In this document: positions 334-62,425 of the stretch, piece after piece | Layout: every line of letters starts with the position of its first letter | Numbering within the stretch: position 1 is the first letter of the stretch | DNA from: Bacteroidota bacterium | Lineage (GTDB): Bacteria > Bacteroidota > Bacteroidia > CAIKAF01 | Direction of reading: 5' to 3' | Length of the DNA: 64,000 nucleotides | Assembly: GCA_016866335.1 (NCBI GenBank) | Contig: VGMT01000003.1 | Location: forward strand, 1-64,000 | Position numbers and translations under genes: made by a program | Notes under the pieces: generated by a model | Database searches by the model: none | Seen by the model: only the letters and a program-made list of their open reading frames with translations | What the model was told of the DNA's origin: nothing

Positions 334-478
334 TGCGGGCGGGATTGAAGCAGCTACCCCGCAAGGGTGCCGAAGCCTGGCCCGCTAGGTGCGGAGGCGA
401 GGTTAGGAGCCCCCGCAAACCAGCAGGGCCAGCCTTTCGGCAACCGCGGAGTAGCGCTGAAAGCCCGAAACCCGCCCC
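334..478 (-). repeat. 145-bp long-hairpin element, copy 1
   Basis: First of nine related elements. Strand is given so that the element reads away from the stop codon of the adjacent gene, here 6 bp away at 485. It is one long interrupted hairpin. Stems include CTGGCCC/GGGCCAG, TGCGG/CCGCA and GCCGAA/TTTCGGC. The end stem is GCGGG/CCCGC, where other copies have GCGGCAG/CTGCCGC, which is a compensated change. On the plus strand the apical loop is GAGGTTAGGA, the most divergent loop in the set. Apparent long ORFs crossing it are by-products of its GC-rich sequence. Nothing else is seen in 262-484. Confidence 0.85.
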
Positions 479-484
479 AAAAAA

Positions 485-1897
485 TCAATTTAATCGGCCA
501 ATCAGCTGTTGAATTTGTTCGGGGCTGTACCCTTCGGCTTCGGCCAGCCGGCGAAGTTCGGTGGGCGGCATTACGCTGCTCAGGAAAGATTCGACCGGGC
601 GGCGCTGAACCCAACTGGGGCGTGCCAGGCAGCGTAAAAAGTGGCGCACCGCCTTTTCGGGGCTATGCAGATACATGCCGGCCAGCCAAGGGCTTGATTT
701 CGGTTCGGCTTGCATGCCCCAGGTTTCGGCTTTTTGCACAGCCCAATTCCAGTACGAAGGGTTGCGCGACCAGCCGAAAAAGTGTTGGGCGCGCTCGGGA
801 ATGCTGTCGGTCCGCTGCAAAGCGGGCAGCATCCAGGTCCACAAACTGCCGCTGTTTGCGCTCAAAAAATCGGCCAAATCGGGAAAGCGTTCGGGGGGAG
901 CCAGGCACAGGGCCTGCAGCCACCAAAATGCCTGTTCAGACGGAGGTTGCTTGGCAATGCCTCGCTGCAGCACGGGCAAGGGCTTATGCACCAGCTTGCT
1001 CTGCAATTTCATGAAAAATTCGGCCTTTTCAGTTTGGAAAGGAAGGGTTTCGCCCAACCAAATCCGTTCAACAAATTCGGCCTTTTGAAGGTAATACCTG
1101 GCGCTATCGGGCCAAATACCGGCGGTAAGCCTGGCCCATTGCCTGCAGCCCCGCGCCGTATTTAGGTCGGGATAGCCCAGCGTTTTAGCCCAATGCAAAA
1201 GGGAATCGATTTGGCCAAGGTCGGCCAGGGTTTGCAGCAGAACGGGGTAGTCGGGCGCCTCGAAGGGTGGGCCAGACCGGCGCAAATACGTCCAAGCCAG
1301 GCTGGGATTCTTGTTGATTAAATGCAAGCGGGCAAGCATAAGGTATTCGGCGGTATCAGCAAATCCGGCCGATTCCATGAACGAAAAATCGCTGAGCGCC
1401 AAATTCAGGCAGCGGTAGCGAAAGCTGCTGTCGGTGCCTGCCCAGGGAGCAGGGTTGCCTTGGTATTGAGCGTGGCCATCGACCCAGGCTTGAAACAATC
1501 CATGGTTCAGCATTTCGTAGGCCATCAAGGCTCGACGGCCCAGCAATTCAGGGTAAGGTCCGAAGCGCAGAATGGCCGAATCAATGGCTTGCATTCCGGC
1601 TCGGCGTTGCCCATTTCGAAACAAGCACCAAGCGGCGACCTGCAGCCCCTGTGGGCAATCGGGTTCTCCGTTGCGTACCGACAAAGCGAACAGCAGCGCC
1701 TTTTCGCTTTCGTTTTGCTCTAAACTTTGAAGGGCAAACCTCAACTGAGCATCGCTCCAATCGGAACAGGAGGTCAGGGGCCGAAGCTCTAAACCCTGAA
1801 GGTCGGTTAGGGGAGAAAAAACAGGTTTTTGAGCCTTGAATTCAAGCAAAGTAAAGCAAGAACCCAACAGCAGCAAGGTTCGAAAAAGCAAACTCAT
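485..1897 (-). CDS. Secreted hypothetical protein, helical-repeat type
   Basis: A 470-residue protein with an N-terminal signal peptide (MSLLFRTLLLLGSCFTLLEF, cleavage probably near AQK), so it is exported. The rest is rich in Ala, Leu and Trp, with evenly spaced helices and phrases such as YLMLARLHLINKNPSLAWTY that resemble TPR-like helical hairpins. No catalytic motif is visible. Its start overlaps the stop of the preceding SDR gene by four bases (ATGA, 1894-1897), which implies translational coupling. I cannot assign a function; a periplasmic or surface scaffold is one guess. The gene is followed after 6 bp by hairpin element copy 1. Confidence 0.8.
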   Translation of the reverse strand: MSLLFRTLLLLGSCFTLLEFKAQKPVFSPLTDLQGLELRPLTSCSDWSDAQLRFALQSLEQNESEKALLFALSVRNGEPDCPQGLQVAAWCLFRNGQRRAGMQAIDSAILRFGPYPELLGRRALMAYEMLNHGLFQAWVDGHAQYQGNPAPWAGTDSSFRYRCLNLALSDFSFMESAGFADTAEYLMLARLHLINKNPSLAWTYLRRSGPPFEAPDYPVLLQTLADLGQIDSLLHWAKTLGYPDLNTARGCRQWARLTAGIWPDSARYYLQKAEFVERIWLGETLPFQTEKAEFFMKLQSKLVHKPLPVLQRGIAKQPPSEQAFWWLQALCLAPPERFPDLADFLSANSGSLWTWMLPALQRTDSIPERAQHFFGWSRNPSYWNWAVQKAETWGMQAEPKSSPWLAGMYLHSPEKAVRHFLRCLARPSWVQRRPVESFLSSVMPPTELRRLAEAEGYSPEQIQQLIGRLN

Positions 1898-2694
1898 GGC
1901 CTTTGATTTTCGCGCTGAAACACCTTAATAACTTGGTTGTTGACAAAGGCAGGCAGAAATTTGCCGAGCAGGTGGGTCAACTTTCCCTGGGTGGTAAGCA
2001 CCAATTTTGGTTTGCGTTGTTGAACCGCGTTTAGGGTGAAAACAGCCACCTGGGCTGCCGTCATCATTTTTTGCTCGTCGCGGGGCGATTCGCCCTGGGC
2101 ATTTCCTTGGGCATTTAGGGCGGTATTTCGGATGTTTGAAGCCGTAAAACCCGGGCAGCAAATCAATACATGCAATCCTGAATCGTGGTTTTCAAGACGA
2201 ATGGATTCAAGCAGTCCGTGCATGGCAAACTTAGAGGCACAATACCCGGTGCGGCCGGGGAGGCCCTGAAAGCCGGCCACCGAAGAAATGCCCACCAGAG
2301 ATCCTTGGCTTTTTAACAGCAAGGGCATAGCGTAGCGGGAGCAGAAAACCGTCCCCCAAAAATTCACATCCATAACCTGCTTGAGCACCTTTAAATCGAG
2401 TTCATGAAACAGGGCGCGCATGGAAATGCCGGCGTTGTTGATCAGCACATCAAGCCGCCCGTATTGGGCCTCGATGGCCTGAATAAATTGCCGGCATTCG
2501 GATTCTTGGCTCACATCGACGGTCAAGCATAGGCAAGGTTGGCCCAGGGCTTCTACTTCTAAGCGAAGAGATTCCAGTTGTGCGGCGTTTCGTCCGCAGG
2601 CGGCGATTCGTGCTCCGCGCCGCGCTCCCTCAATCGCTATAGCCCTTCCAATACCAGAAGTAGCTCCCGTAATTGCCAAAACCAAATTTTTCAT
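1894..2694 (-). CDS. Short-chain dehydrogenase/reductase
   Basis: A 266-residue classical SDR oxidoreductase, cytosolic and NAD(P)H-dependent. The N terminus carries the Rossmann motif TGATSGIG, followed by the NNAG motif (VLINNAGIS), the catalytic Ser in GISSVAG and the Tyr/Lys pair in TGYCASKFA. The start is placed at the ATG at 2694 because the glycine motif follows at once; the open frame continues about 120 codons upstream, but that stretch overlaps the divergent GNAT gene and has no SDR similarity. The C terminus has several basic and hydrophobic residues (KLTHLLGKFLP), as in membrane-associated SDRs of lipid metabolism. The substrate cannot be told. It is the first gene of a two-gene operon. 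Confidence 0.9.
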   Translation of the reverse strand: MKNLVLAITGATSGIGRAIAIEGARRGARIAACGRNAAQLESLRLEVEALGQPCLCLTVDVSQESECRQFIQAIEAQYGRLDVLINNAGISMRALFHELDLKVLKQVMDVNFWGTVFCSRYAMPLLLKSQGSLVGISSVAGFQGLPGRTGYCASKFAMHGLLESIRLENHDSGLHVLICCPGFTASNIRNTALNAQGNAQGESPRDEQKMMTAAQVAVFTLNAVQQRKPKLVLTTQGKLTHLLGKFLPAFVNNQVIKVFQRENQRP

Positions 2695-2715
2695 ATCAAC
2701 GCAAAGTACATTTTT

Positions 2716-2723
2716 TATCTTTG
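2716..2723 (+). promoter_or_regulatory. Promoter -7 box TATCTTTG
   Basis: Matches the Bacteroidota -7 consensus TAnnTTTG. Only 3 bp separate it from the ATG at 2727, so the GNAT transcript may be leaderless. Confidence 0.6.
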
Positions 2724-2726
2724 AGC

Positions 2727-3902
2727 ATGGCTTATGCGGTTGAAAAGGTAGAAAATAAAGCGCAAATTCGGAGGTTTCATGCCTTGCCCTTTGCGTTGTA
2801 TCAGAGCAATCCGCTGTGGATTCCGCATTTAAAGCAAGACGTAGAAAAGGTATTTGATGCACGCAAAAACAAAGCGTTTCGGGGTGGAGAAGCCCAACGT
2901 TGGCTTTTGCGCGATTCCCAGGGCAAAGATGTGGGTCGGGTGGCGGCTTTTTACAACCAAAAAACGGCCAAATCGTTTGATCAGCCAACAGGAGGCCTGG
3001 GTTTTTTTGAGTGCATAAACGATGCCGAGGCGGCCTTTGCCTTGTTTGACTGCTGCAAAGCATGGTTGCAAGAAAAAGGCATGCAGGCCATGGATGGCCC
3101 CATCAATTTTGGAGAAAAGAATGCCTTTTGGGGGTTGTTGACCGATGGATTTGAGCATGAGCCGGCCTATCAAATCAACTACAACCCGCCTTATTACCAA
3201 GCTTTTTTTGAATCGTATGGGTTTAAGACCTATTACGAGCAATATGTATTTTGGCGGCGCACCGACGCCCCGGCACAAGAGATTTTTGTGCGCAAGGCAG
3301 AAATGCTAAAGTTTGTTGATGGCTTTGAGGTGCGGAATGTGCGGGGGGTATCGGAAGATCAATTGGCTCGGGATTTTTTGGCGGTGTACAACGAAGCCTG
3401 GGGCAATCATGCCGGATTTAGTCCCATGAAACTGGCTCAAGCTCAAGCCATCATGAAAGCCATTAAGCCGGTGAAAGACCCCGACATCAGTTTGTTTGCC
3501 TTTTATAAAAACAAGCCCATTGGATTTTACATCAACCTGCCTGAACTAAACCAAATATTCAAGCATGTGAAGGGCAACCTAAATCTTTGGGGCAAATTGG
3601 TGTTTTTATGGCATAAATGGAGACGCACACCGCATACCATGTATGGAATTGTGTTTGGTATTGTGCCCGAATGGCAAGGCAGAGGGGTAGAAGGCGCCAT
3701 GATCAAGTTTGCCGAGGACCACATAGTACCTAAAGGGCAATATGTAGATACCATCATAACTTGGATAGGGGACTTTAACCTAAAGATGTTGCGGATTTGC
3801 GAGAACTTAAATGCGCAGAGGCAACGCACCCTTAAAACCTATCGGTACCTGTTTGATCGAGAAAAACCGTTTGAGCGCCACCCTTTTATTGGGAAAAAAT
3901 GA
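2727..3902 (+). CDS. GNAT-family N-acetyltransferase-like protein
   Basis: A 391-residue cytosolic protein. The C-terminal half has the acetyl-CoA-binding loop of GNAT enzymes (PEWQGRGVEGAMI, the Q-x-x-G-x-G type) after a hydrophobic strand (YGIVFGIV). The N-terminal half (NPLWIPHLKQDVEKVFD) matches my recollection of a long GNAT-like family common in Bacteroidota. The start at 2727 is preferred over an ATG at 2673 because the promoter box lies between them and because the earlier start would run into the divergent SDR gene. Its stop overlaps the glycosyltransferase start by four bases (ATGA). The substrate is unknown; the coupling suggests a shared role in making a cell-surface glycan or lipid. 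Confidence 0.75.
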   Translation: MAYAVEKVENKAQIRRFHALPFALYQSNPLWIPHLKQDVEKVFDARKNKAFRGGEAQRWLLRDSQGKDVGRVAAFYNQKTAKSFDQPTGGLGFFECINDAEAAFALFDCCKAWLQEKGMQAMDGPINFGEKNAFWGLLTDGFEHEPAYQINYNPPYYQAFFESYGFKTYYEQYVFWRRTDAPAQEIFVRKAEMLKFVDGFEVRNVRGVSEDQLARDFLAVYNEAWGNHAGFSPMKLAQAQAIMKAIKPVKDPDISLFAFYKNKPIGFYINLPELNQIFKHVKGNLNLWGKLVFLWHKWRRTPHTMYGIVFGIVPEWQGRGVEGAMIKFAEDHIVPKGQYVDTIITWIGDFNLKMLRICENLNAQRQRTLKTYRYLFDREKPFERHPFIGKK

Positions 3903-4999
3903 AAAGTGGCCGCAAAAAGCTCTTGGTTTTATGCCCTTATCCCAGGGGAACTGCGCCCAGCCAGCGGTTTAGATTTGAACAGTATTTGGGAATTTTAGAG
4001 GCCGAGGGTTGGGAAATTCAACAGGAGCCATTTTGGGATGAGCAGAGTTGGGAAATACTGTATCAAAAAGGACAGGTATTATCGAAGGTTTGGGCGTTAT
4101 TGCGTGGGTTTTGGCGCAGAAGCACCCTGGTTTTTCGTGTGGCTAAGGTTCAGGTGGTTTTGGTTCACCGAGAATTGGCTCCTATGGGATTTCCCTGGGT
4201 GGCGTGGTTTCTGACCCAGGTACTGAAAAAGCCCATGGTTTTTGATTTTGACGATGCCATTTGGATTCCCAACACCAGCCACAGCAACCGCAGGACCTTG
4301 GGCTTAAAATCGTATGGAAACACATCGAAGTTGATTCGAATGTCGAGTTTGGTGTTTGCCGGAAACGCCTTTTTAGCCGAATACGCGAAGAGCTGTGGGG
4401 GTAGGGCAGAGGTGAACATAATGCCCACAACCATTGACACCGAAGGTCACCACAATCGGCTGGGCAGTCCAAGCAAAGAAGCGTTTGTGGTGGGTTGGAC
4501 CGGTTCACACTCCACCCTCACGTACTTGAACGACCTAAAGCCAACCATGGAAGCCCTTGCTGCCGAGTTTCCCTTGCGCTGGGTAATTGTATCGGATGTT
4601 CGCCCCAACTTTGATTGCTCTTTTTTGGAATTCCGGCCTTGGTCAAAAGAAACCGAGGTGGAAAGCCTGTTGGATTTTCATGTGGGAGTTATGCCCTTGA
4701 GGGACGATGCTTGGGCCGAAGGGAAATGTGGGTTTAAAGCCCTGCAGTATTTGGCTTTAGGAATTCCGGCCTTGGTTTCGACGGTGGGGGTAAACAAAGA
4801 AATTGTGCAAGAAGGCGAAAACGGGTATTTGTGTTCAGAACCTGAGGACTGGTATGAGCGTTTGAAGCAACTGGCCTCGGATGCCGAACTTTTGGCCTTG
4901 CTATCAAAAAATACCCGCAAAGGAATACAGAGCAAATACTCGGTTTTGGCTTACAAGGAACGCTATTTGGAGGCATTAAATCGGCTGAGCAAACACTAA
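3899..4999 (+). CDS. GT4-type glycosyltransferase
   Basis: A 366-residue GT-B fold enzyme that probably transfers a sugar from a nucleotide-sugar donor to a surface polysaccharide or lipid precursor on the cytosolic face of the inner membrane. The N-terminal domain opens with [20 protein letters not shown], typical of bacterial GT1/GT4 enzymes. The C-terminal donor domain has the usual pattern [20 protein letters not shown] followed by [11 protein letters not shown]. The start overlaps the upstream GNAT stop by four bases, so the two genes are coupled. Donor and acceptor cannot be read from sequence. The gene could equally be called glycosyltransferase family 1. Confidence 0.85.
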
Positions 5000-5037
5000 A
5001 AAAAACGGGAAGGGTGAAAATGCACCAAATTTTCCTT

Positions 5038-5045
5038 TAATTTTG
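5038..5045 (+). promoter_or_regulatory. Promoter -7 box TAATTTTG (accB)
   Basis: Fits TAnnTTTG, 24 bp before the accB ATG at 5070. It marks the start of the accB-accC-plsC run. Confidence 0.6.
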
Positions 5046-5069
5046 AACCTTGCATTTAAACTACATGCG

Positions 5070-5570
5070 ATGGAATTAAAAGAAATTCAAGAGTTGATTA
5101 AATTCGTTTCTAAGGCTGGAGTAGCCGAGGTAGAATTGGAATCAAAAGGCTTTAAAATTGTGATTAAGACACAAAACAAAGCCCCAGAAAATACGGTAAC
5201 TTACGTACAAGCGGCCATGCCGCAAGCAGCCCCCGCAGCGGCGCCTCAGGCGGCCCCAGCCCCAGCCCCAGCCCCGGCAGCCGCTCAGCCTCAAGCAGCG
5301 CCTGCAGCGGCCAGCGAAGACCTGAGCAAATACATCACCGTAAAGGCTCCAATGGTAGGCACCTTTTACCGCCGTCCCTCGCCTGATAAGCCCATTTTCG
5401 CCAATGTGGGCGACGAAGTAAAGCCTGGAACAGTATTGTGCATCATCGAAGCCATGAAATTGTTCAACGAAATTGAATCGGAGGTTTCAGGTCGGATTGT
5501 TAAAATTTTGGTGGACGACGCTTCACCGGTTGAATTCGACCAACCCTTGTTCCTTATTGATCCCTCCTAA
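5070..5570 (+). CDS. accB: Biotin carboxyl carrier protein of acetyl-CoA carboxylase
   Basis: A 166-residue carrier subunit that holds biotin for acetyl-CoA carboxylase, the first committed step of fatty acid synthesis. Residues 1-45 form the N-terminal helix and strand region, residues 48-81 a Pro/Ala-rich flexible linker, and residues 88-164 the biotinyl domain. The biotinylation motif reads EAMKL with Lys130 as acceptor, where many family members have AMKM. The ATG at 5070 was chosen because [11 protein letters not shown] is the usual N terminus; an in-frame ATG at 5043 overlaps the promoter box. accC follows after 35 bp, the common accBC order. Confidence 0.96.
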
Positions 5571-5605
5571 AGTAGGGATTTAGGTTTCATCAAAAAGCAA
5601 CGATT

Positions 5606-6943
5606 TTGTTTAAAAAAATTCTCATTGCCAACCGGGGCGAAATCGCCCTTAGGGTAATACGTACTTGCCGTGAAATGGGTATAAAAACGGTGGCGGTTTA
5701 TTCTACCGCCGACCGAGAAAGCCTGCATGTTCGATTTGCCGACGAGGCCGTGTGCATTGGCCCGGCTCCCAGCAAAGAATCGTACCTGAATATGGCAGCC
5801 ATTATTTCGGCCGCTGAAATCACCAACTCGGACGGTATTCACCCCGGATATGGTTTCCTTTCAGAGAACGCCAAATTTTCGCGCATTTGCGAAGAGCATG
5901 GAATCAAATTTATTGGGCCCTCGCCCGAAATGATTTTGGCCATGGGCGACAAGGCCACGGCCAAGGCCACCATGATTAAGGCTGGCGTGCCAACCGTTCC
6001 AGGTAGCGAAGGACTTATTGATACGTTGTATGACGCAATAAAGGCGGCCAAAGAGGTGGGATACCCCGTTATGATTAAGGCTACGGCCGGAGGCGGCGGA
6101 AAAGGCATGCGCATTATTCGCAGCGACGAAGAATTAAAGGTGCAGTGGGACAAAGCCCGCGCCGAGGCCGGAGCCGCTTTTGGCAACGATGGCATGTACA
6201 TGGAGAAATTCATTGAAGAGCCCCGCCACATCGAAATACAAATTGCCGGCGACAATACAGGCAAAGCCTGCCATTTGTCAGAACGGGATTGCTCGGTTCA
6301 GCGCCGGCACCAAAAATTGGCCGAGGAAACACCTTCGCCCTTCATGGACGATCAGCTTAGAGAAGCCATGGGATTGGCGGCCATAAAAGCCGCCGAATCC
6401 ATTCGCTACGAAGGCGTAGGTACCGTAGAGTTCTTGGTGGACAAATACAAAAACTTCTACTTTATGGAGATGAACACCCGTATTCAGGTGGAGCATCCCA
6501 TTACCGAAGAGGTGATCAATTACGACTTAATTAAAGAGCAAATTAAAATTGCGGCCGGGCATCCGATTTCAGGTAAAAACTACTACCCAGAAAAGCATGC
6601 CATTGAGTGTCGAATCAACGCCGAAGACCCCTACAATGGATTCAGGCCAAGTCCGGGAAAAATCACCACCCTGCACGTTCCGGGTGGACATGGTGTTCGG
6701 GTTGACACCCACGTGTATGCCGGCTACACCATTCCTCCCCATTACGATTCCATGATCGCCAAATTGATTGTGGTGCATCAAACCCGCGAAGAAGCCATCG
6801 ACAAAATGCTAAGGGCATTGCAGGAATTTGTGATTGAAGGCATCAAAACTACGATTCCCTTCCACATTCAATTGATGCAAGACGAACGGTTCCGTAAGGG
6901 CGACTACACCACCAAATTCATGGATGATTTTGTGCTGAAATAA
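5606..6943 (+). CDS. accC: Biotin carboxylase, TTG start
   Basis: A 445-residue ATP-grasp enzyme that carboxylates the biotin on AccB using bicarbonate and ATP. It starts with the hallmark [13 protein letters not shown], has the glycine-rich ATP lid GGGGKGMR near residue 165, and the metal-binding and catalytic segment [14 protein letters not shown]. Length matches the family (about 450). The first codon is TTG at 5606-5608: no ATG or GTG lies between it and the in-frame stop at 5573-5575, and the family N terminus (M-x-K-I-hydrophobic-ANRGE) lines up exactly with it. The weak start may help set subunit ratio, which is inference. Confidence 0.95.
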
Positions 6944-6954
6944 GAGCGCAAAGC

Positions 6955-7722
6955 ATGAAAAAGGTATTGGTATTTATTGGCAGAATCATACAGGTTCCGT
7001 ACATGGTATGGGCTTTTGTCTGGTTTGTTGTGCTGATGTTGGCCGCGGCGGCTTGGGCGGCACCGGTGTATGCCTTGTTGGGAGCAAAGGGGCAAAAAAT
7101 TATGTTCCCGGCCTATAAATTATGGGCTCGGAGTTGGTTTTTGCTTTGCGGCATTCGTTTGGTGGTTGAAAACAGAAGGCACATCAACGAAGCCCAACCG
7201 GCCATTATTGCAGCCAACCATTCTTCGCATTTAGATGTGTTGAATGGAGCCTTGGCCTCACCACTCATGGTTCGGGCCTTAGCCAAAGTTGAACTGAAAA
7301 AAATACCGGTGCTGGGTTACATGTTTCAAACCAGCAGCGTGTTTGTAGATCGGTCTTCGCCCGAAAGCCGCAAGCGCAGCGTGGAACGTTTGCAGCGGAC
7401 TTTGAACGCCGGATTTTCGCTGTTTTTGTTTCCTGAAGGAACGCGCAATCGCAGCAGCAAGCCACTGACACCCTTTTACGACGGAGCGTTTCGAATTGCA
7501 ATTTTGTCGCAGCGGCCCATTGTTCCATTGGTGGTGCTGGGAGCCACCAAGGTGTTTCCCATGAAAGGCATTTCTTTGAAACCGGGCACCATACGTTGCC
7601 GGTACCTTCCCGGTATTCCAACCCTTGGTATGAACGATTCAGACCTGAACGGGCTGAAAGAACAGGTTTATGGGTTGATGGAAGCCGAATTGCTTCGGGA
7701 ACAAGCCGAACTCTATTCCTAA
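6955..7722 (+). CDS. plsC: 1-acyl-sn-glycerol-3-phosphate acyltransferase-like
   Basis: A 255-residue inner-membrane acyltransferase that would acylate lysophosphatidic acid to phosphatidic acid. Residues 15-43 form a hydrophobic anchor. The catalytic HX4D motif is NHSSHLD (His89, Asp94), and the acceptor-binding motif FPEGTRNRS lies at residues 159-167. Only 11 bp separate it from the accC stop, so it continues the lipid operon: acetyl-CoA carboxylase feeds acyl chains that this enzyme loads on glycerol. Related enzymes acylate other lysolipids such as ornithine lipid precursors, so the substrate is less sure than the family. Confidence 0.88.
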   Translation: MKKVLVFIGRIIQVPYMVWAFVWFVVLMLAAAAWAAPVYALLGAKGQKIMFPAYKLWARSWFLLCGIRLVVENRRHINEAQPAIIAANHSSHLDVLNGALASPLMVRALAKVELKKIPVLGYMFQTSSVFVDRSSPESRKRSVERLQRTLNAGFSLFLFPEGTRNRSSKPLTPFYDGAFRIAILSQRPIVPLVVLGATKVFPMKGISLKPGTIRCRYLPGIPTLGMNDSDLNGLKEQVYGLMEAELLREQAELYS

Positions 7723-7790
7723 GGCACTGTGCCAGGGTTTGGCTGTATCAATATTCTGTACCTTTAGGGCATGAACCTTTTGCCCGAAAA

Positions 7791-8303
7791 ATGAAGCGAA
7801 GAATCCGCATACATGGCCTGTTGGCTTTGCTGTGGCTGGGAATGCTGTTGGTTGGCTGCAAAGTAAGCTTATCGGGCATTTCAATTCCAGAGGCTGCACG
7901 GACTGTTTCGGTCGAGAACTTCGAAAACCAAGCGGCCCAAACCAACCCTGCTTTTCCGCAGCAGTTGACCGAAGAGGTTCGGCAGCGGTTTTTATCGCAA
8001 ACCCGCTTGCAGGTCATCAATTCGAATGGCGACCTGGGGTTTTCGGGCGTCATAACCCAATATCAGACTCAATCTTTGGCCTTAACGGGGAATGAAACGT
8101 CTGCCCTAACACGTTTAAACATATCTATCAAGGTAAAGTTTGACAACCGCCTGAATCCGGAGAAGAATTTTGAAAAGACCTTTAGCCGCTTTGCTGATTT
8201 TCAGGCGAATCAACCCTTATCGGCGGTAGAATCGGCTTTGCTGCAAGAGATATCGGAACAATTGGTTCAGGATATTTTTAACGAGGCGTTTTTGGATTGG
8301 TAA
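7791..8303 (+). CDS. LptE-like outer-membrane LPS assembly lipoprotein
   Basis: A 170-residue lipoprotein with signal peptide and lipobox LLVGC, giving the lipidated Cys. The mature part resembles the Bacteroidota LptE family: VSLSGISIPEAARTVSVENF, then LTEEVRQRFLSQTRLQVI and the strand GDLGFSGVITQY. LptE plugs the LptD barrel that inserts lipopolysaccharide in the outer membrane. The start at 7791 is the first one giving a proper signal peptide; the frame is open further upstream inside plsC but without a signal. It converges with the small membrane gene on the other strand. Naming rests on pattern recall, not a search. Confidence 0.8.
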   Translation: MKRRIRIHGLLALLWLGMLLVGCKVSLSGISIPEAARTVSVENFENQAAQTNPAFPQQLTEEVRQRFLSQTRLQVINSNGDLGFSGVITQYQTQSLALTGNETSALTRLNISIKVKFDNRLNPEKNFEKTFSRFADFQANQPLSAVESALLQEISEQLVQDIFNEAFLDW

Positions 8304-8312
8304 GTGGCTGGT

Positions 8313-8516
8313 TTAAGGTCCAAAGGTTTCTACATCGTTCCCCTCGGCATCTTTTTTTCGGCCTTTTGAACTTAGATCAATGGTGCTGTTTCGGTCGGGT
8401 GCTGGGGTTTGAGCCTCGGGGCGATTTCGCTGCTGATACCTTTTGGCCAACCAAGAAATCAGGCGAAAGACCAGATAGGCAATAAACGCAGTTCGAACAA
8501 TGGCCCAGAATTTCAT
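8313..8516 (-). CDS. Small membrane protein, DUF4834-like
   Basis: A 67-residue protein with one N-terminal membrane segment (about residues 5-24, IVRTAFIAYLVFRLISWLAK), then a basic, polar tail (RYQQRNRPEAQTPAPDRN). This layout matches DUF4834, a small Bacteroidota family of unknown function. Its ATG is only 4 bp downstream of the carB stop, so it is probably translated from the carB message. The overlapping plus-strand frame has no such features and was dropped. The link to pyrimidine or arginine synthesis is positional only. Confidence 0.7.
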   Translation of the reverse strand: MKFWAIVRTAFIAYLVFRLISWLAKRYQQRNRPEAQTPAPDRNSTIDLSSKGRKKDAEGNDVETFGP

Positions 8517-8520
8517 GGTT

Positions 8521-11331: not shown

Positions 11332-11348
11332 AGAGTGCTTTTGGATTT

Positions 11349-11356
11349 CAAAGGTA
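11349..11356 (-). promoter_or_regulatory. Promoter -7 box TACCTTTG (carB)
   Basis: Fits TAnnTTTG, 17 bp before the carB ATG. It lies between carB and the transposase remnant, so carB keeps its own promoter. Confidence 0.6.
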
Positions 11357-11399
11357 GGAAACTTTCCTGAGCTGGGGGTTGGGTTTGGGGGGTAAAAAG

Positions 11400-11770: not shown

Positions 11771-11832
11771 AAATAAAAATGCCGATTATTAGGAAGAAAA
11801 AACCAATAAATGGCCTTGAAATTGCTAATAAT

Positions 11833-12880: not shown

Positions 12881-13163
12881 TAAAAAGATATGAAAAGTAA
12901 ATTTTCCAAGCAATAGTTTCTTGAAACTTATTGACTAATGGGTTGCTTTCGGCTTCACAGTATCCACCCCAGCAACTACACCTCCAATGTTCCTGGGAAC
13001 AAGTTTTGCCATCCAGTTCTCAACCTCGGAGAACATCTTTTCTTGTAAACTCATCGAACATATATTTGCCTACAAAACTCAGCAAGCTTTTGGGGCTAAA
13101 AAATACGTGGTTGCTCGGGGGGATACGCTGTTTTGAAATTAAATGGCTTGAACCATTGTGCCG
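12881..13163. other. Gene debris between AbiEi and hairpin copy 2
   Basis: No intact gene. On the minus strand a 39-codon frame (13054 to 12935) opens MSLQEKMFSEVENW, which recalls the short accessory proteins of IS66-type elements, then diverges. On the plus strand an overlapping frame ends KKYVVARGDTLF-stop at 13136, which resembles the beginning of a LysM repeat. At most one of these readings is real. The stretch is best read as remnants left by insertions and deletions. Confidence 0.35.
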
Positions 13164-13309
13164 CCCGCGGCAGGGATTGAACCGGGTTGCCCGCAAGGGT
13201 GCCGAAGCCTGGCCCGCTAGGTGCGGAGGCGACTTTAGGAGCCCCCGCAAACCAGCTGGGCCAGCCTTTCGGCAACCGCGGACAACCGGTGAAAGCCCGC
13301 AGCCGCCCA
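13164..13309 (-). repeat. 146-bp long-hairpin element, copy 2
   Basis: Lies 112 bp after the sprA stop and reads away from it on the minus strand. Inner arms are nearly identical to copies 1 and 5 (CTGGCCC/GGGCCAG, TGCGG/CCGCA), but the second stem is CCGGGTTG/CAACCGG instead of AGCTAC/GTAGCT, so both strands changed together. The plus-strand loop is GACTTTAGGA closed by GGC/GCC. Nothing is recognised in 13310-13420. Confidence 0.88.
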
Positions 13310-23499: not shown

Positions 23500-23511
23500 G
23501 CTTTTTTATTT

Positions 23512-23654
23512 GGGCGGCAGCCGGGCTTTCCAGGCTAGTCCTCGCCTTTAGGCGGGGCAGTGCAGGCCCCAAAGTAGCTCCTAAAGTCGCTCTTTGGTGC
23601 GCTTGCTGCCAGCCGCCTTAAGTTCTGCGGGCTAGCCCTGTCAATCCCTGCCGC
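23512..23654 (+). repeat. 143-bp long-hairpin element, copy 3
   Basis: Starts 12 bp after the asparaginase stop and reads away from it. End stem GCGGCAG/CTGCCGC, second stem GGGCTAG/CTAGCCT, inner stem ACCAAAG/CTTTGGG. The minus-strand loop is GACTTTAGGA closed by AGC/GCT. Arms are unlike copies 1, 2 and 5 except at the ends and loop. Confidence 0.88.
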
Positions 23655-23732
23655 AGCCAACCCATGGCATTCAACGGAACCGCATTGTTGAAAAACCACC
23701 CAACATCCACCCGCAAGCATCGGACGCAGGCC

Positions 23733-23757
23733 AAAAAAAAGGCCGCAATTGCGGCCC
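23733..23757 (-). terminator. Intrinsic terminator of tRNA-Ser
   Basis: On the minus strand GGGCCGC-AATT-GCGGCC forms a 6-bp GC stem with a 4-nt loop followed by eight T. It lies 7 bp after the encoded CCA of tRNA-Ser. Confidence 0.88.
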
Positions 23758-23764
23758 TTAAGCT

Positions 23765-23855
<91 letters not shown>

Positions 23856-23966
23856 ATAAAAACCGCCCGGCACAAATCCCCAAGCGGGACGCGAAAATAC
23901 GAAAAATGCGTAGGCCCCAAAGTAGATACCTCAGGGCTTGAATTTAGAATTAGATGAATACGTGGC

Positions 23967-39560: not shown

Positions 39561-39676
39561 TCTCTCACTTTGTTTTTGGCCCTTTTTTCGGTCTGAGCTC
39601 CATTCGTATTTTACCCGCAGCGAGGCAAAATTTTGCTTCTGCCGGCCGTAGGTTTGTTTTGAAAAAGATGGATTCT

Positions 39677-39821
39677 GGGCGGCAGACGGGCTTTCCGAGC
39701 TACTCCGCGGTTGCCGAAAGGCTGGCCCAGCTGGTTTGCGGGGGCTCCTGAAGTCGCCTCCGCACCTAGCGGGCCAGGCTTCGGCTTCCTTGCGGGGTAG
39801 CTTCGTCAATCCCTGCCGCGG
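39677..39821 (+). repeat. 145-bp long-hairpin element, copy 5
   Basis: Lies between the two glycine-rich paralogues, 117 bp after the first stop and reading away from it. End stem GCGGCAG/CTGCCGC, second stem AGCTAC/GTAGCT, inner stems CTGGCCC/GGGCCAG and TGCGG/CCGCA. The minus-strand loop is GACTTCAGGA closed by GGC/GCC. Inner arms nearly match copies 1 and 2. Confidence 0.9.
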
Positions 39822-39875
39822 CTCGGATAGCCTGCAGCCGCTCAAAAAATAATAGTATTGCCATTTAAACTGCTG

Positions 39876-39883
39876 TATATTTG
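39876..39883 (+). promoter_or_regulatory. Promoter -7 box TATATTTG (glycine-rich paralogue 2)
   Basis: Fits TAnnTTTG, 31 bp before the ATG at 39915. Confidence 0.55.
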
Positions 39884-39914
39884 CATGTTATTGCAGACTA
39901 ATCCTGAAGAAACC

Positions 39915-41603
39915 ATGAGACACATCTTGCCTTTAATGCTGATTGTAAGCACGTTAACCATAAAAAACCTGCATTCTCAGGGGGTTACCATTGGGTCAAA
40001 CAATCCGCCCGATGCCTCGGCGGTGCTCGATTTGCAATCTACTCAAAAGGGCTTGCTGCTGCCGCGGCTTACCACTGTTCAGCGCAACGCCATTCAGCTG
40101 CCTTCGCGGGCCTTGGTGATTTACAATACAGACAATGAGTGCATTGAAGGATATTTTCCTGGCGGATGGAAAGCCCTGCAATGCGACTGCAACAGCGCTC
40201 CGCCGAGTCCCGCTTTGATTTCGGGGCCAACCTTGGCCTGCCCTGCCGATACTGGCCTGCTGTTTTCCATTGCTCCGGTAACGGGCGCAACCTCTTACCT
40301 GTGGACCATTGGCAGTACCGATACGCTGATTTCGGGCAGCGGAACCGATTCGGTGCGCGTAAATTTGAGTGCCCTTACAGGTCAGCGCAGCATTGCAGTA
40401 AGCGCCGTGAATTATTGCGGAACTTCGGTTCCGGCCAGCCTAAGCCTGAGCGTTTCGGTGCCCGACAGCACCTTTACCGTTCAGCCGGGAACACCCATAA
40501 TCAACAATGCGGCTCAATTTAACGCCAACCAAGCCAATGCAACCTATGCCTGGACCTTTCCTTCGGGAAGCCCGGGCAGTTCAACGGCCCAGAACCCTTC
40601 GGTAACCTGGACCCAAACCGGAACCTATGCCGTGCAATTGACAGTAACCGATGCCAACGGCTGTCAAAGTCAAAAAACAGATTCCATAACAGTAACCAAC
40701 TGTTCTCCCGCTACCTGGACATTTAGCAATTGCGGTCAAACCGGGCGTACCGGCCCAAGCCAAGCCCAGTGCAATTCCACCTACGGGTCGGGCGTGGTAA
40801 CGGTTTCGAACGGTGTGCAGCTGTGGACCGTACCCGCTACGGGCAACTACACCATTCAAGCGGCAGGGGCCGAGGGCGGCGACAAGGGCGATTACCTGAA
40901 CCAATCGGGAAAGGGCCTCATTGTTTCAGTTAGCGTTTCTTTAACCGGGGGAACGGTGTTGGCCATTGTGGTAGGTCAGCGGGGCGGACAGTGTTTGTCA
41001 GCGAACAGCTCAGGCGGCGGTGGCGGAGGCGGGGGAAGTTATGTGTACAACAACCAAAGCAATGTGCTGTATGTGGCTGCCGGTGGGGGCGGAGGCATCG
41101 GAGCTGGAAACAGCACCCGCAAGCCGGGCCGGAATGCTTCTTCAGCCCAAAGTTCAGGAACAAACCAACAAGACAACAACAACGGGCCAAGCAGCTACAG
41201 CTATTTTGCCGTTACCGGAAATGGTGGGGGCAGTTATGGACAGGTTATAGGCCAAGGCGATTACGATTCGGGTGGAGGAGCCGGTTGGAATGGGAATGGA
41301 ATGAACGGAGTAATGTACCCCGGCACCGAAGGAGGGCGGTCGCGGGCCAATGGATTCTTGGGCGGGAATTACGACAACAGCAGAAATCCGTATGTAGCCG
41401 TAGGTGGTTTTGGCGGTGGCGGGGGCGCTTCTGATGGGGGCGGCGGTGGCGGGGGCTACACCGGCGGAAACGGCGGACGCTGGAACAGTTTGGCCACGGG
41501 CGGCGGCGGCGGAACCTGCTACGTGGTGGGCAACAACAACCCCTCTAGCCTAGGAAATCAGTCTGGCCACGGGCAGGTGGTAATCACCCGGACATGTCCT
41601 TGA
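39915..41603 (+). CDS. Secreted PKD plus glycine-rich protein, paralogue 2
   Basis: A 562-residue exported protein. The ATG at 39915 is chosen because it gives a signal peptide (MRHILPLMLIVSTLTIKNLH) and follows the promoter box; an ATG at 39858 precedes that box. Residues 28-75 (ASAVLDLQSTQKGLLLPRLT) match the N terminus of paralogue 1. Then come an Ig/PKD-like pair (about 95-270, with YAWTFPSGSPG and GTYAVQLTVTDANGC) and a glycine-rich domain (about 285-562) with YTIQAAGAEGGDKGD, AIVVGQRGG and long GGGGG tracts, resembling the ALK/LTK-type Gly-rich fold. It ends GQVVITRTCP. A cell-surface adhesin is plausible. Confidence 0.82.
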   Translation: MRHILPLMLIVSTLTIKNLHSQGVTIGSNNPPDASAVLDLQSTQKGLLLPRLTTVQRNAIQLPSRALVIYNTDNECIEGYFPGGWKALQCDCNSAPPSPALISGPTLACPADTGLLFSIAPVTGATSYLWTIGSTDTLISGSGTDSVRVNLSALTGQRSIAVSAVNYCGTSVPASLSLSVSVPDSTFTVQPGTPIINNAAQFNANQANATYAWTFPSGSPGSSTAQNPSVTWTQTGTYAVQLTVTDANGCQSQKTDSITVTNCSPATWTFSNCGQTGRTGPSQAQCNSTYGSGVVTVSNGVQLWTVPATGNYTIQAAGAEGGDKGDYLNQSGKGLIVSVSVSLTGGTVLAIVVGQRGGQCLSANSSGGGGGGGGSYVYNNQSNVLYVAAGGGGGIGAGNSTRKPGRNASSAQSSGTNQQDNNNGPSSYSYFAVTGNGGGSYGQVIGQGDYDSGGGAGWNGNGMNGVMYPGTEGGRSRANGFLGGNYDNSRNPYVAVGGFGGGGGASDGGGGGGGYTGGNGGRWNSLATGGGGGTCYVVGNNNPSSLGNQSGHGQVVITRTCP

Positions 41604-41638: not shown

Positions 41639-41695
41639 CAACACCGCCTGCGGTGTTGCACCCTTGCGGGGTAGCTTCGTCAATCCCTGCCGCGG
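41639..41695 (+). repeat. Half hairpin element, copy 6a
   Basis: The far end of a common-type element (CCCTTGCGGGGTAGC, TCGTCAATCCCTGCCGCGG) is intact, but the other half is replaced by a perfect 9-bp hairpin, CAACACCGC-CT-GCGGTGTTG (41639-41658). It reads away from the stop at 41603. It is either a deletion product or a mini form. 41696-41792 holds nothing recognisable. Confidence 0.7.
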
Positions 41696-41792
41696 CGCCT
41701 GGCGGTTTATCCAGTTTGGAATTGGCAGCCAATTGGCCGCCTTTACTAAGGTGTTGTTAACCCTGAACATGTGCCGCTTTTTTGTGGGTTGG

Positions 41793-41937
41793 CCCGCGCC
41801 CCCGATGGAGCCGGCAGCGGGCGCCGACCTGCCCCCAAAGGGCCAGGCGCTAGGAGGCGACCTTGGGAGCCACCGCAGCGCCCAAGGCCCTTGGGGCAGG
41901 GCAAGCCCGCTACAGGTGACAGCGGGAAAAGGCGCCC
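41793..41937 (-). repeat. 145-bp long-hairpin element, copy 6b (variant ends)
   Basis: Reads away from the hldD stop, 25 bp away. Stems GCGGGC/GCCCGC, CCTGCCCC/GGGGCAGG and GGCGCT/AGCGCC; plus-strand loop GACCTTGGGA closed by GGC/GCC. Its ends (GCGCCCCCGATGGAG and GCGGGAAAAGGCGCCC) match copy 4, defining a second subtype. Confidence 0.82.
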
Positions 41938-41962
41938 AATTCCAACCCTTTTACTGCAAGAT

Positions 41963-50866: not shown

Positions 50867-50931
50867 GCAAGCAAAATGCAGATGCCATTCTACTTAAATT
50901 CAATAAGCTGAAATTTAGTTAAAGGGCGTTT

Positions 50932-51146: not shown

Positions 51147-51154
51147 TACCTTTG
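51147..51154 (+). promoter_or_regulatory. Promoter -7 box TACCTTTG (thioredoxin)
   Basis: Fits TAnnTTTG, 17 bp before the ATG at 51172. Confidence 0.65.
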
Positions 51155-51171
51155 CGTAAAACATAATTAGT

Positions 51172-59912: not shown

Positions 59913-61466
59913 ATGACTTCTAGATTGGTCCGAATTCTGGTCATTTTTATGTTTTTCGCCATGACGGGTCTGGTGGGCATACAAATTATTTGGATTCAAC
60001 GGGCCGTTGAACAGCGCGAAGACCAGTTTGACCAAGGTGTTTTTGAAGCGCTGGCTCAAACCACCGTAACCTACCAAGAATCAAGTTGGCAGCGTGATTT
60101 TGACCAATCGTTTAATTGGAAAGCGTTTGAATTGTTGGTGCAAAATCACATGGATTCGCTGAGCCGCCTGGCTCGGTCGCAAAACCGTGGCAGCGGCTAC
60201 ACCATGAACCGCCAAAGCTCGTATCAAAATTCTCAAGAACGGCTGCAGTTTTCAATAAGCCCCTTTGGGGGAGCAGAAATGACGGTTAGCAATCCTGAAA
60301 CCGATTCGTCAAGGGCGGCCATACAGCAAGAAATGCATCAAACTTTTTTGATGTTGAACCAAAGTCGGACCTTAATTGGACAACTGTTTCGGCAAATGGT
60401 GGCCGATTTCTCTGTGGATTTGCCTACCGATATTGACACTTCATTGCTGCGCCATATTTTGGAGGCCGAGCTTAAGGAACATGGGGTTAAAACGGGCTGG
60501 ACCTACGGTTTGATACTGCCGAGCGAAAAAACGTTTAGTTTTCATGAAGCCCGCTACGCGACCCAGCTTGCTGCCTCAGAATACCGCAGCCCATTGATGG
60601 TAAATCCCGCCGCCGCCAGCCCTGAATTGGTGGTGTATTTTCCTCATAAAACCAGTTTTTTGCTTCGCAATTTGTATTTCTTGTTGGCGGCTTCGGCGGT
60701 TCTTATTCTGATCATCATCGCGGCCTTTTCTTCAACCATTATCATTATTGTTCGGCAAAAAAAGGTTCAAGAAATTAAGAACGACTTAATCAACAACATT
60801 ACCCACGAATTAAAAACCCCCATCAGCACCATTTCGTTGGCTTGTCAGGCCATAGCCGACCCCGATTTAGGAAGGTTGCCCAGCACCCGCGACAAGTACA
60901 TGAACATGATTGCCGAAGAAAACAAACGCCTTGGTATGCTGGTTGAAAACGTACTTCAGGCCGCGGTTTTTGAACGCGGCGAAGGGCAACTGAAGCTTCG
61001 CAAGGTTGACATGCATCAAAAAATAAGCAGTGTACTTCGAAGCTTGGATATTCAAATCGACAACCGAAAAATTTCAGTGGTGAAAAACCTCGACGCCCGT
61101 GATTTTGTAGTGGAAGCCGATGAGATTATGGTAACCAATTTGATTTTCAATTTGGTCGATAATGCTATAAAATACAGCCGAAAAACCGACGGAAACATCA
61201 CGGTTTCAACCTGGAACGAAGAAACCCATTTTTACATGGAGGTTGCCGATAACGGAATAGGCATTTCAAAAGAAAACATAAAGCGTATATTTGATAAACT
61301 ATATCGAGTTCCCACCGGCGACGTTCACGACGTGAAAGGCTACGGTTTGGGCTTGAGTTATGTTAAAAAAATCGTGGAAGCACATCAAGGCGACATCCAA
61401 GTTAAAAGCCAGCTGCAAGAAGGCAGCCGGTTTCAAGTACGCCTACCTTTAAAACAAGAAATCTAA
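59913..61466 (+). CDS. Membrane sensor histidine kinase
   Basis: A 517-residue inner-membrane kinase. TM1 lies at about residues 7-28 (ILVIFMFFAMTGLVGIQIIW), a periplasmic sensor of about 220 residues follows, and TM2 is at about 253-280 (YFLLAASAVLILIIIAAFSS). The HisKA domain holds the phosphorylated His298 in NITHELKTPIS. The ATP domain has the N box (LIFNLVDNAIKYS), G1 (VADNGIGISKENIKRIFDKL) and G2 (GYGLGLSYVKKI). The sensor has no recognised ligand fold. Architecture and partner resemble RprX-type kinases of Bacteroidota. The response regulator starts 5 bp after its stop. Confidence 0.93.
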   Translation: MTSRLVRILVIFMFFAMTGLVGIQIIWIQRAVEQREDQFDQGVFEALAQTTVTYQESSWQRDFDQSFNWKAFELLVQNHMDSLSRLARSQNRGSGYTMNRQSSYQNSQERLQFSISPFGGAEMTVSNPETDSSRAAIQQEMHQTFLMLNQSRTLIGQLFRQMVADFSVDLPTDIDTSLLRHILEAELKEHGVKTGWTYGLILPSEKTFSFHEARYATQLAASEYRSPLMVNPAAASPELVVYFPHKTSFLLRNLYFLLAASAVLILIIIAAFSSTIIIIVRQKKVQEIKNDLINNITHELKTPISTISLACQAIADPDLGRLPSTRDKYMNMIAEENKRLGMLVENVLQAAVFERGEGQLKLRKVDMHQKISSVLRSLDIQIDNRKISVVKNLDARDFVVEADEIMVTNLIFNLVDNAIKYSRKTDGNITVSTWNEETHFYMEVADNGIGISKENIKRIFDKLYRVPTGDVHDVKGYGLGLSYVKKIVEAHQGDIQVKSQLQEGSRFQVRLPLKQEI

Positions 61467-61471
61467 GCCAC

Positions 61472-62176
61472 ATGGAAGACATTAAGCCCAAAATTTTACT
61501 GGTTGAAGACGAAGCCAATCTTGGCAACCTGTTGAAAGACTACCTGATAGCCAAGGGGTTTGACTCGGTTTTGGCCACAGATGGCCAGGAAGGATTCGAC
61601 GTTTTTTCAAGGCATCGGTTTGACATTTGCATTTTAGACATCATGCTTCCGGTGAAAGATGGGCATACCCTAGCCAAAGAAATTCGGCAGGCCAACCCAA
61701 ACATGCCCATTATTTTTTTGACAGCCAAAAGCCTGCCCGACGATCGGATTGAAGGTTTTAAAAGCGGGGCAGACGATTATTTGACCAAGCCGTTTAACGT
61801 GGAAGAGCTTTTGCTGCGCATCCAAGCCGTATTGAAGCGTTCGGCCGCAATCCCTGCAATGCACGCCAACGAAACGTTTTTCAGCCTGAGCCGGTACACC
61901 TTCGATTCGCAAAAACAATGGCTGACCTTCGAGGGGTGCGAAGCCCAAAAGCTGACCTCCAAAGAATCGGATTTGCTCCGCTTGTTGGCCTTGAATTTAA
62001 ATAAAACATTGGACCGCGGCTTTGCGCTCAAAACCATTTGGGGCGACGACAGTTATTTCAATGCGCGAAGCATGGATGTTTACATCACCAAACTGCGCAA
62101 ATACTTAAAAGAAGACACGAAAATTGAAATTTTAAACGTCCACGGCAAGGGCTTTAAAATGCTGATTTCGGAGTAG
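61472..62176 (+). CDS. OmpR/PhoB-type response regulator
   Basis: A 234-residue transcription factor. The receiver domain (residues 6-122) has the acidic pocket VEDE, the phosphoacceptor Asp56 in CILDIMLP, the switch Thr in IFLTAKS and the Lys in DDYLTKPFNVEELL. The C-terminal winged helix (about 130-234) contains LTSKESDLLRLLALNLNKTL and SMDVYITKLRKYLKED, with the recognition helix in ARSMDVYITKLR. It is paired with the upstream kinase and resembles RprY. Target genes are not evident from the window. Confidence 0.94.
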   Translation: MEDIKPKILLVEDEANLGNLLKDYLIAKGFDSVLATDGQEGFDVFSRHRFDICILDIMLPVKDGHTLAKEIRQANPNMPIIFLTAKSLPDDRIEGFKSGADDYLTKPFNVEELLLRIQAVLKRSAAIPAMHANETFFSLSRYTFDSQKQWLTFEGCEAQKLTSKESDLLRLLALNLNKTLDRGFALKTIWGDDSYFNARSMDVYITKLRKYLKEDTKIEILNVHGKGFKMLISE

Positions 62177-62282
62177 TTGTTAACGGGCTAAATTGGCGGT
62201 TGCCCGGCCCCTTTTAGTTGGGAATGGGGCATCAAAACAACATGTTCATGGTTTGGCATGGCCATTCAAGGGTGAATAGGGT

Positions 62283-62425
62283 GGGCGGCAGCCGGGCTTT
62301 CAGGGGTTGTCCGCTGTCAGCGGGCTGGGCTGCAGCGGGCGGCAGGTAGCTCCCAAGGTCGCTCCTGCCGCCGCGCGCAGCCCCGCCCGCTGCCATTGCG
62401 GGCAACTCCCTTCAATCCCTGCCGC
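62283..62425 (+). repeat. 143-bp long-hairpin element, copy 8
   Basis: Lies between convergent genes, 107 bp after the response-regulator stop and reading away from it. End GCGGCAG/CTGCCGC, then GTTG/CAAC, GCAGCGGGC/GCCCGCTG and GCGGCAGG/CCTGCCGC. The minus-strand loop is GACCTTGGGA closed by AGC/GCT. 62177-62282 and 62426-62480 hold nothing recognisable. Confidence 0.88.

What the first reader, a model, noticed from the sequence alone, without database searches (positions are those of the whole stretch)
334..62425. A dispersed family of ~145-bp long-hairpin elements with a conserved apical loop
Eight full copies (334, 13164, 23512, 36656, 39677, 41793, 59662, 62283) and one half copy (41639) lie only between genes. 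Length is nearly constant (143-146 bp) although stem sequences differ greatly. Each forms one long interrupted hairpin topped by a ten-base loop, GACYTTNGGA in seven copies and GAGGTTAGGA in the eighth, closed by a 3-4 bp stem. Constant length, conserved loop and ends, and variable paired arms are the marks of selection on a fold. I know of no named family with these features. REP/BIME-like elements moved by a RAYT enzyme, MITEs, or structured 3'UTR RNAs are the candidates.
Basis: partly seen in the sequence, partly recalled or inferred. Interest (0 to 1): 0.85.

Follow-up and report, generated by a model that had tools for sequence, protein, structure and literature searches.

The report
Long intergenic hairpins akin to Flavo-1
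An uncultured Flavobacteriales bacterium carries roughly 250 copies of a 145-base hairpin between its genes; they look like stretched relatives of Flavo-1, a catalogued "RNA" of unknown function, and their pattern of change suggests that this kind of element may act as folded DNA rather than as RNA.

Summary
A covariance model finds all eight copies (E 7e-34 to 4e-6), 86 copies in the 856 kb of this genome that I examined (about 246 per genome), and many in all five sampled congeners. Copies are intergenic, point both ways, and 156 of 158 are 146-151 bp by the model's ends. Half of the consensus pairs show compensatory change.

No Rfam family matches the window copies. A chain of models (window model, short forms in other families, second model) leads to Flavo-1 RNA (RF01705): an extended relative, not a member by Rfam's cut-off.

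New: (1) 18 of 18 testable sites are occupied in a second species (elements 90%, flanks 66% identical). (2) At several sites the outer arms stay while the inner hairpin is replaced; at one, an outgroup shows that a core common elsewhere in this genome overwrote the old one. (3) In the variable arms G.U is no commoner than A.C (tRNA control 19 to 0), yet G.A far exceeds T.C on one strand. Best reading: a strand-specific DNA hairpin, spread long ago, now homogenised by conversion. An RNA is not excluded: some fixed A.C mismatches would be G.U on the other strand. The recogniser is unknown; no Y1/RAYT transposase was found here.

The parts
330..478 (+). copy 1 (strand A on +); loop variant GAGGTTAGGA; carries the common inner core
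   Evidence: CM R1 149.8 bits; same site occupied in G001 and G003, inner hairpin differs in G003
13162..13309 (+). copy 2; common inner core
   Evidence: CM R1 155.6 bits; the G001 copy beside the same downstream gene (one flank syntenic) shares the outer arms but not all of the inner arms
23511..23659 (-). copy 3; lies beside a tRNA segment that is inverted together with it in G001
   Evidence: CM R1 115.6 bits
36655..36801 (-). copy 4, diverged subtype with base GCACCCCCGATTGA / GAAAGCGGG..GGCGCC
   Evidence: CM R1 44.1 bits; site occupied in G001 and G003
39676..39824 (-). copy 5; common inner core, loop GACTTCAGGA
   Evidence: CM R1 161.5 bits; the G001 copy beside the same (there inverted) gene has the same outer arms and a different inner hairpin
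41662..41696 (-). half copy: one outer arm, identical to 35 bases of copy 5
   Evidence: repeat family D2
41791..41938 (+). copy 6, diverged subtype
   Evidence: CM R1 36.1 bits; G003 has at this site a hairpin-like sequence that the model does not find and that I read as decayed
59658..59806 (+). copy 7
   Evidence: CM R1 122.1 bits
62282..62430 (-). copy 8
   Evidence: CM R1 135.2 bits

Best explanation
The elements are a high-copy family of dispersed DNA palindromes, an elongated relative of Flavo-1 (RF01705). Shown: copies form one long interrupted hairpin of nearly fixed length; most share a basal internal loop (GGGATTGA opposite GAAAGCCC), a less conserved middle block (CCCGC opposite GCGGAC) and a tip in which a tandem G.A pair carries a six-base cap (GA-CYUUNG-GA). 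The helices between are almost free in sequence. Sites are old and stable between species, while at some sites the inner part of the hairpin, loop included, is replaced by the inner part of other copies. Inferred: when the locus is single-stranded or extruded, one strand (A) folds and is recognised by a protein that reads the fixed mismatches and the length; this spread the elements long ago. Today they are kept by selection on the folded DNA and by conversion between copies. The protein is not identified.
For: Size and spread. Link to Flavo-1: R1 finds short forms in other genera; R2, built from short forms, hits 49 of 119 Bacteroidia genomes and also long copies of this genome; loci found in these ways match RF01705, L273 (found by R2) just above its gathering score (42.7 against 42) and L044 (found by R1, a 150-nt form of the window's own family) at 33.7 bits, E 0.0019; 11 matches on 16 loci in all. 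Old fixed sites: 18 of 18 with G001, 8 of 10 with G003; reciprocally 18 of 18, 7 of 7 and 1 of 1. Element identity 0.90 against 0.66 in 42-bp flanks. Core replacement: G000:C6:64202, outer identity 0.98, inner about 0.6 to both G001 and G003, whose cores resemble each other by eye, while the G000 core is the one common elsewhere in G000; also sites 330 (against G003), 13162 and 39676 (against G001). DNA rather than RNA: cluster-weighted G.U 16.6 against A.C 14.7 in the variable arms; 9 against 9 one-sided changes between orthologues; Flavo-1 of other genera 6 against 5 beside 745 Watson-Crick pairs; tRNA control 19 against 0; no shift with the strand of the flanking genes. One special strand: G.A 50.2 against T.C 10.1, G.G 26.0 against C.C 5.0. 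Published: in F. psychrophilum Flavo-1 hits seemed indistinctly in sense or antisense of transcripts and many were not in them (PMC9723704, passages).
Against: Over the whole element and all 166 copies, unweighted, strand A has 264 A.C and 106 G.T mismatches; the excess sits mainly at a few fixed positions (28, 57, 65), but on strand B these would be G.U, as a strand-B RNA would like. Unweighted counts in the variable arms are 45 G.U and 57 A.C. Among the more similar orthologue pairs the one-sided changes are 9 G.T to 5 A.C. Strand B is more often and more closely behind the nearest upstream stop codon (76 to 46). G.A mismatches are typical of RNA loops too. 13 loci of the window's genus gave no RF01705 match even at E<=10. 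No protein candidate, no insertion event and no target duplication was seen, so past mobility rests on copy number. Conversion can make elements look conserved without selection.
Confidence: 0.5

Rival explanations
1. A structured RNA family (non-coding or 3'UTR hairpin), as Flavo-1 was catalogued in 2010: the transcript folds and is bound or protected.
For: Covariation; RNA-like tandem G.A motifs on strand A; fixed A.C mismatches on strand A that would be G.U on strand B; strand B follows the nearest upstream gene's stop codon more often and more closely (76 to 46); Weinberg et al. list Flavo-1 as 'RNA? y' (PMC2864571, table passage).
Against: No G.U excess in the variable arms, weighted by cluster, on either strand or in either transcription sense, nor in Flavo-1 of other genera, against 19 to 0 in tRNAs; all gene contexts, 27 of 149 between divergent genes; reported as indifferent to transcript strand in F. 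psychrophilum.
Confidence: 0.25
2. A currently mobile, non-autonomous element (MITE- or REP-like) moved in trans by a transposase.
For: About 246 copies, intergenic, both orientations; a core shared by many copies with different outer arms; an A-rich run at one end.
Against: No empty site among 18 G001 and 10 G003 comparisons (two G003 sites have no model hit: one holds what looks like a decayed hairpin, the other I did not inspect); no Y1 transposase in G000 or G001; no exact match of one pattern in viral contigs.
Confidence: 0.15
3. Neutral palindromes whose arms are kept complementary by template switching between arms, without function.
For: Quasi-palindromes can be corrected in this way (established knowledge, recalled); some changes are clustered on both arms.
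Against: Fixed mismatches and loop persist in diverged copies although correction would erase them; length is held within a few bases; the element is far more conserved than its flanks.
Confidence: 0.1

Closest known systems
Flavo-1 RNA (Rfam RF01705; Weinberg et al. 2010, PMC2864571)
   Same: Hairpin with conserved basal loop GAUNGNAGC / GCGGANAGC, variable inner arms, many copies in Bacteroidia; joined to the window family through models R1 and R2.
   Different: Flavo-1's model has 76 positions; here nearly fixed at about 145-150 with a middle block and a conserved G.A-capped tip; window copies give no RF01705 match at E<=1; the three G000 matches at E<=0.001 (28-30 bits) are short elements elsewhere in the genome.
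REP/BIME elements with RAYT (TnpA-REP)
   Same: Intergenic, dispersed, both orientations, imperfect palindromes with fixed mismatches (general features recalled).
   Different: Several times longer, no GTAG/CGTC tag in the end profile, no Y1 transposase found in this genome, sites stable between species.
MITEs
   Same: Short, non-coding, high copy.
   Different: The whole element is one hairpin; no duplication or empty site seen.
Integron attC sites (recalled, not tested)
   Same: Variable-arm hairpins read as one folded DNA strand through unpaired bases.
   Different: Dispersed between ordinary genes; recalled attC boxes were not searched for.

Membership tests
Flavo-1 RNA, RF01705 | Score at or above Rfam's gathering score of 42 bits | tested here: not met
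   No RF01705 match in the window at gathering or E<=1; none over the cut-off in G000, G001, G002, G005, G009, G014; none at E<=10 on 13 loci of the window's genus
Flavo-1 RNA, RF01705 | Homology of architecture (basal loop and closing motifs) | tested here: met
   Indirect, through R1, R2 and RF01705; L044, a 150-nt form in the window's own family, matches RF01705 over positions 1-76 at E 0.0019
REP/RAYT | Y1 (RAYT) transposase encoded in the genome | tested here: not met
   0 matches in G000, G001, G013 and G014, while 5 of 14 control genomes ring; G002, G003, G004, G005 do have Y1 matches
REP/RAYT | GTAG or CGTC tag at one end of a 20-40 bp palindrome | tested here: not met
   End profile shows no such tag; element about 145 bp; definition from the title and start of the abstract of PMC3733652
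MITE | Empty sites or target-site duplication | tested here: inconclusive
   No empty site found; flanks show no consensus except an A-rich run; duplications were not searched site by site
Structured cis-acting or small RNA | G.U pairs tolerated above A.C on the RNA strand | tested here: not met
   Variable arms, cluster-weighted; Flavo-1 of other genera; tRNA control. Unweighted whole-element counts lean to A.C on strand A (264 to 106), that is G.U on strand B, at a few fixed positions
Structured cis-acting or small RNA | Transcribed from a consistent strand | not testable with these tools
   No RNA-seq for this organism; published counter-evidence for Flavo-1 in F. psychrophilum (passages)

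The most novel reading that the evidence does not exclude
Flavo-1, filed as a non-coding RNA since 2010, and its long relative here are not RNAs at all: they are a Bacteroidia-wide class of DNA hairpins read on one strand by an unknown hairpin-binding protein, in which the inner hairpin spreads from site to site by conversion while the outer arms stay with the site. They may be tolerated because many of these genomes lack the hairpin nuclease SbcCD.
Probability: 0.33. Interest if true: 0.78.

Novelty: new variant of a known kind. Interest (0 to 1): 0.6.

Why it matters
Flavo-1 is widespread in Bacteroidia (47 of 119 sampled genomes at E<=0.001, 29 over Rfam's cut-off) and its function has been open since 2010. 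The wobble test, applied here to the window family and to Flavo-1 itself, and the indifference to gene context point towards DNA, which makes the question testable. The two-tier evolution, with stable outer arms and an exchangeable inner hairpin that stays paired, is an unusual mode of concerted evolution; I saw no description of it in the listings of the searches that I made (open-licence PMC only, four papers opened at passages).

Tried and rejected
Rfam at gathering and at E<=1 on the window: tRNAs and weak matches that overlap tRNA genes, none on an element. Y1/RAYT transposase: not found in G000 and G001. A strict DNA pattern for short forms over 295 Bacteroidia genomes: 4 with a match, too narrow to count distribution; replaced by model R2. 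Orientation against local GC skew: 63 leading to 50 lagging among the G000 and G001 copies with enough flank and a clear skew, no clear bias. An early thought that SbcCD cuts the hairpin tip and so drives conversion was dropped: SbcD (TIGR00619) gives nothing over the cut-off in G000, G001, G003, G005, G014 or G079 (weak matches of 24.8 and 19.1 bits in G001 and G014), while 13 of 14 control genomes ring, 8 of them over the cut-off. Following that, SbcD against element presence over 119 genomes: elements in 2 of 24 SbcD+ and 55 of 95 SbcD- genomes, Fisher p 7.5e-6, but not significant when permuted within families (p 0.15), at family level (p 0.25) or for genomes with 10 or more Flavo-1 matches (p 0.3), and G036 has SbcD and 26 Flavo-1 matches (family labels typed, and genomes not printed as hits taken as lacking). 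It stays a lead.

Rows set aside. Of 203 R1 matches, I kept 166 and dropped 33 opposite-strand shadows of kept copies and 4 cut off by a stretch or contig end. In one search, of 157 copies in G000, G001 and G003, three overlapping gene edges were set apart and five without a neighbour on both sides were left out, leaving 149. In one search, 14 of 60 Flavo-1 stretches were dropped because my motif search did not place them (7 of the 8 from G036). In some searches (lengths) and 83, 8 of 166 copies without the apical motif were left out; the tip letters are therefore conserved partly by construction. In one search at E<=1, 5 of 14 control genomes also ring with RF01705 (none over the cut-off), so its weak matches mean little.

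Mended. A first gene caller missed many genes and was replaced. A first tRNA control was mis-parsed and redone. An earlier count said 20 of 20 shared sites; one search lists 18 of 18, corrected. On checking this report against the calls I added the unweighted counts and therefore lowered the best explanation from 0.55 to 0.50 and the novel case from 0.35 to 0.33, and raised the RNA rival from 0.20 to 0.25.
Full report
What was checked. The eight reported copies are present and fold as one long interrupted hairpin each. I call strand A the one reading GCGGCAGGGATTGA ... GCGACYTTNGGAGC ... GAAAGCCCG..GCCGCCC. Copies at 330, 13162, 41791 and 59658 are A on the + strand; those at 23511, 36655, 39676 and 62282 are A on the - strand. 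An alignment of six copies gives 50 consensus pairs, 25 with a two-sided change; the named structure pairs 91.2% of cells against 27.7-47.8% for slid partners. The covariance model R1 finds all eight in the window.

Genome-wide. R1 scored 150 candidates in the window's genome (2.45 Mb in 62 contigs), all 150 were matches at E<=7e-17, and 150 is the number that the tool scores. In 855,783 bases examined there are 86 copies, or about 246 per genome. Of 40 genomes (own included), 13 have a match at E<=0.001: the own genome, all five others of the genus (48 to 77, where 77 is the number scored), one of another genus of the family with 72, and six with one to three. A pattern scan named some hosts: contig lengths identify G001 with Flavobacteriales MAG ErkenSummer_bin-6618 and G003 with LaPlata_bin-1703, and probably G004 with casp15-mb.160. 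So the window comes from an uncultured Flavobacteriales genus; the MAG names suggest inland waters, which is inference.

Anatomy. Of 158 copies with a recognisable tip, 156 are 146-151 bases long by the model's ends, one is 143 and one 135. Weighted by 54 clusters of inner sequence, the best conserved letters are the foot GCGGC, the basal GGATTGA, the tip GCGAC..T..GGAGC (in part by construction, since I chose copies with that motif) and the end GCCGCCC; 64 of 84 such G000 copies have the loop GACYTTNGGA. The pairs between change freely. The 3' end of strand A is followed by an A-rich run of about 6-9 bases.

Gene context. With a hexamer-based gene caller of my own, 149 copies in three genomes lie between genes: 44 convergent, 78 co-directional (44 with strand B in the sense of the genes, 34 with strand A) and 27 divergent; three more overlap gene edges. 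So the elements avoid genes but are not tied to 3' ends. Strand B is found more often behind the nearest upstream stop codon (76 to 46), and closer to it.

Stability and core replacement. Of the 86 G000 copies, 18 have both flanks syntenic in the G001 stretches that I held, and all 18 sites are occupied there; in G003 it is 8 of 10; the reverse comparison gives 18 of 18, 7 of 7 and 1 of 1. Of the two G003 sites without a model hit, one holds what looks like a decayed hairpin, at the site of copy 6; I did not inspect the other. Elements are 90% identical and their 42-bp flanks 66%. In 14 of the 18 G001 pairs the inner arms are 0.81 or more identical; in four they fall to 0.61-0.72 while the outer arms stay at 0.90-0.98. 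Examples where the inner hairpin looks replaced while still paired: 330 against G003 (outer 0.95, inner 0.43), 64202 of contig 6 against G001 and G003 (outer 0.98, inner 0.61 and 0.60), 45463 of contig 6 against G001 (0.90, 0.61), and 13162 and 39676 against G001 by inspection. At 64202 the G001 and G003 cores resemble each other and the G000 core is the one found in many other G000 copies with different outer arms, so the G000 copy was overwritten. Nested replacement is visible by eye.

RNA or DNA. On dsDNA, G.T and A.C mismatches should arise equally; selection on an RNA strand would favour G.U. In the variable arms, weighted by 61 clusters of 166 copies, there are 16.6 G.U and 14.7 A.C (unweighted 45 and 57). 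Among one-sided changes between orthologues there are 9 and 9 (9 and 5 in the pairs at least 0.86 identical). Split by transcription sense, weighted: A in sense 5.6 and 3.1, B in sense 3.7 and 2.3, convergent 5.1 and 4.9, divergent 8.3 and 7.3, so no reversal between the first two. In 46 of 60 fetched Flavo-1 stretches from other genera there are 6 and 5 beside 745 Watson-Crick pairs. In 20 tRNAs from the fetched stretches, counted at fixed stem positions, there are 19 and 0. Against this, over the whole element and unweighted, strand A has 106 G.T and 264 A.C, mainly through fixed A.C at positions 28, 57 and 65, which on strand B would read G.U. Mismatches are otherwise clearly asymmetric: G.A 50.2 against T.C 10.1 and G.G 26.0 against C.C 5.0 in the variable arms, the former in all four gene contexts. 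That suggests recognition of one folded strand, not through transcription. This is inference, since G.A mismatches would also suit an RNA.

Relation to Flavo-1. R1 found short, diverged hits in other genera and families. A model of these (R2) hits 49 of 119 Bacteroidia genomes, 34 of 83 genera, and eight places in this genome, most of them long copies. Loci found by R1 or R2 match Rfam's Flavo-1: 11 matches on 16 loci, L273 at 42.7 bits (cut-off 42), the others at 27-37, among them L044, a 150-nt form from the window's own family. On a second set of 16 loci only L056, again from the window's family, matches (27.6 bits, E 0.087), and none of 13 loci of the window's genus does at E<=10. RF01705 itself is found in 47 of 119 genomes and in 0 of 14 controls at E<=0.001. 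The window copies fall below any Rfam threshold, so by Rfam's rule they are not members. I file them as a new, extended variant of this kind. Weinberg et al. 2010 list Flavo-1 as a likely RNA, not cis-regulatory (PMC2864571; table passage). A transcriptome study of F. [quoted passage not shown] passages).

Mobiliser and tolerance. No Y1 transposase in G000 and G001. No SbcD match over the cut-off in six element-bearing genomes, against 8 of 14 controls over it and 13 of 14 ringing. Across 119 genomes, elements go with the absence of SbcD (2 of 24 against 55 of 95), but the association is not significant within families. That long palindromes are destabilised by SbcCD is established knowledge, recalled.

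Judgement. The feature is real, large and not in Rfam at any accepted score; its nearest kin is a catalogued family of unknown function. The most useful results are the evidence that this kind of element may act as DNA, and the core-swapping mode of evolution. Without RNA data or a bound protein the mechanism stays inferred.

Noticed in passing
39858-41603: A PKD-domain protein gene between copy 5 and the half copy is inverted in G001 relative to G000 and G003; in G001 a full element with copy 5's outer arms sits about where G000 has the half copy.
   Followed up: partly
23511-23916: Copy 3 and the neighbouring tRNA segment appear inverted as one unit in G001; the tRNA segment is also inverted in G003.
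   Followed up: partly
G000 genome: SbcD (TIGR00619) not found here nor, over the cut-off, in five other element-bearing genomes, while 13 of 14 controls ring, 8 over the cut-off.
   Followed up: partly
G000:C42:2210-2271, C26:13804-13872, C3:110193-110255: Short elements close to classical Flavo-1 (28-30 bits) coexist with the long family.
   Followed up: no
L087:11330-11668, L156:13077-13422, G000:C16:45367-45699, L119:7093-7455: Pairs of elements in opposite orientation lie about 37-58 bp apart.
   Followed up: no
G001:C44:1-137, C35:1-140, C55:1-99: Assembly contigs of the MAG end inside elements, as expected of repeats that break assemblies.
   Followed up: no
L344, L347, L354, L361: Some Flavo-1 copies of other genera carry some 20-40 nt of other sequence between short inner arms (by eye).
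   Followed up: no
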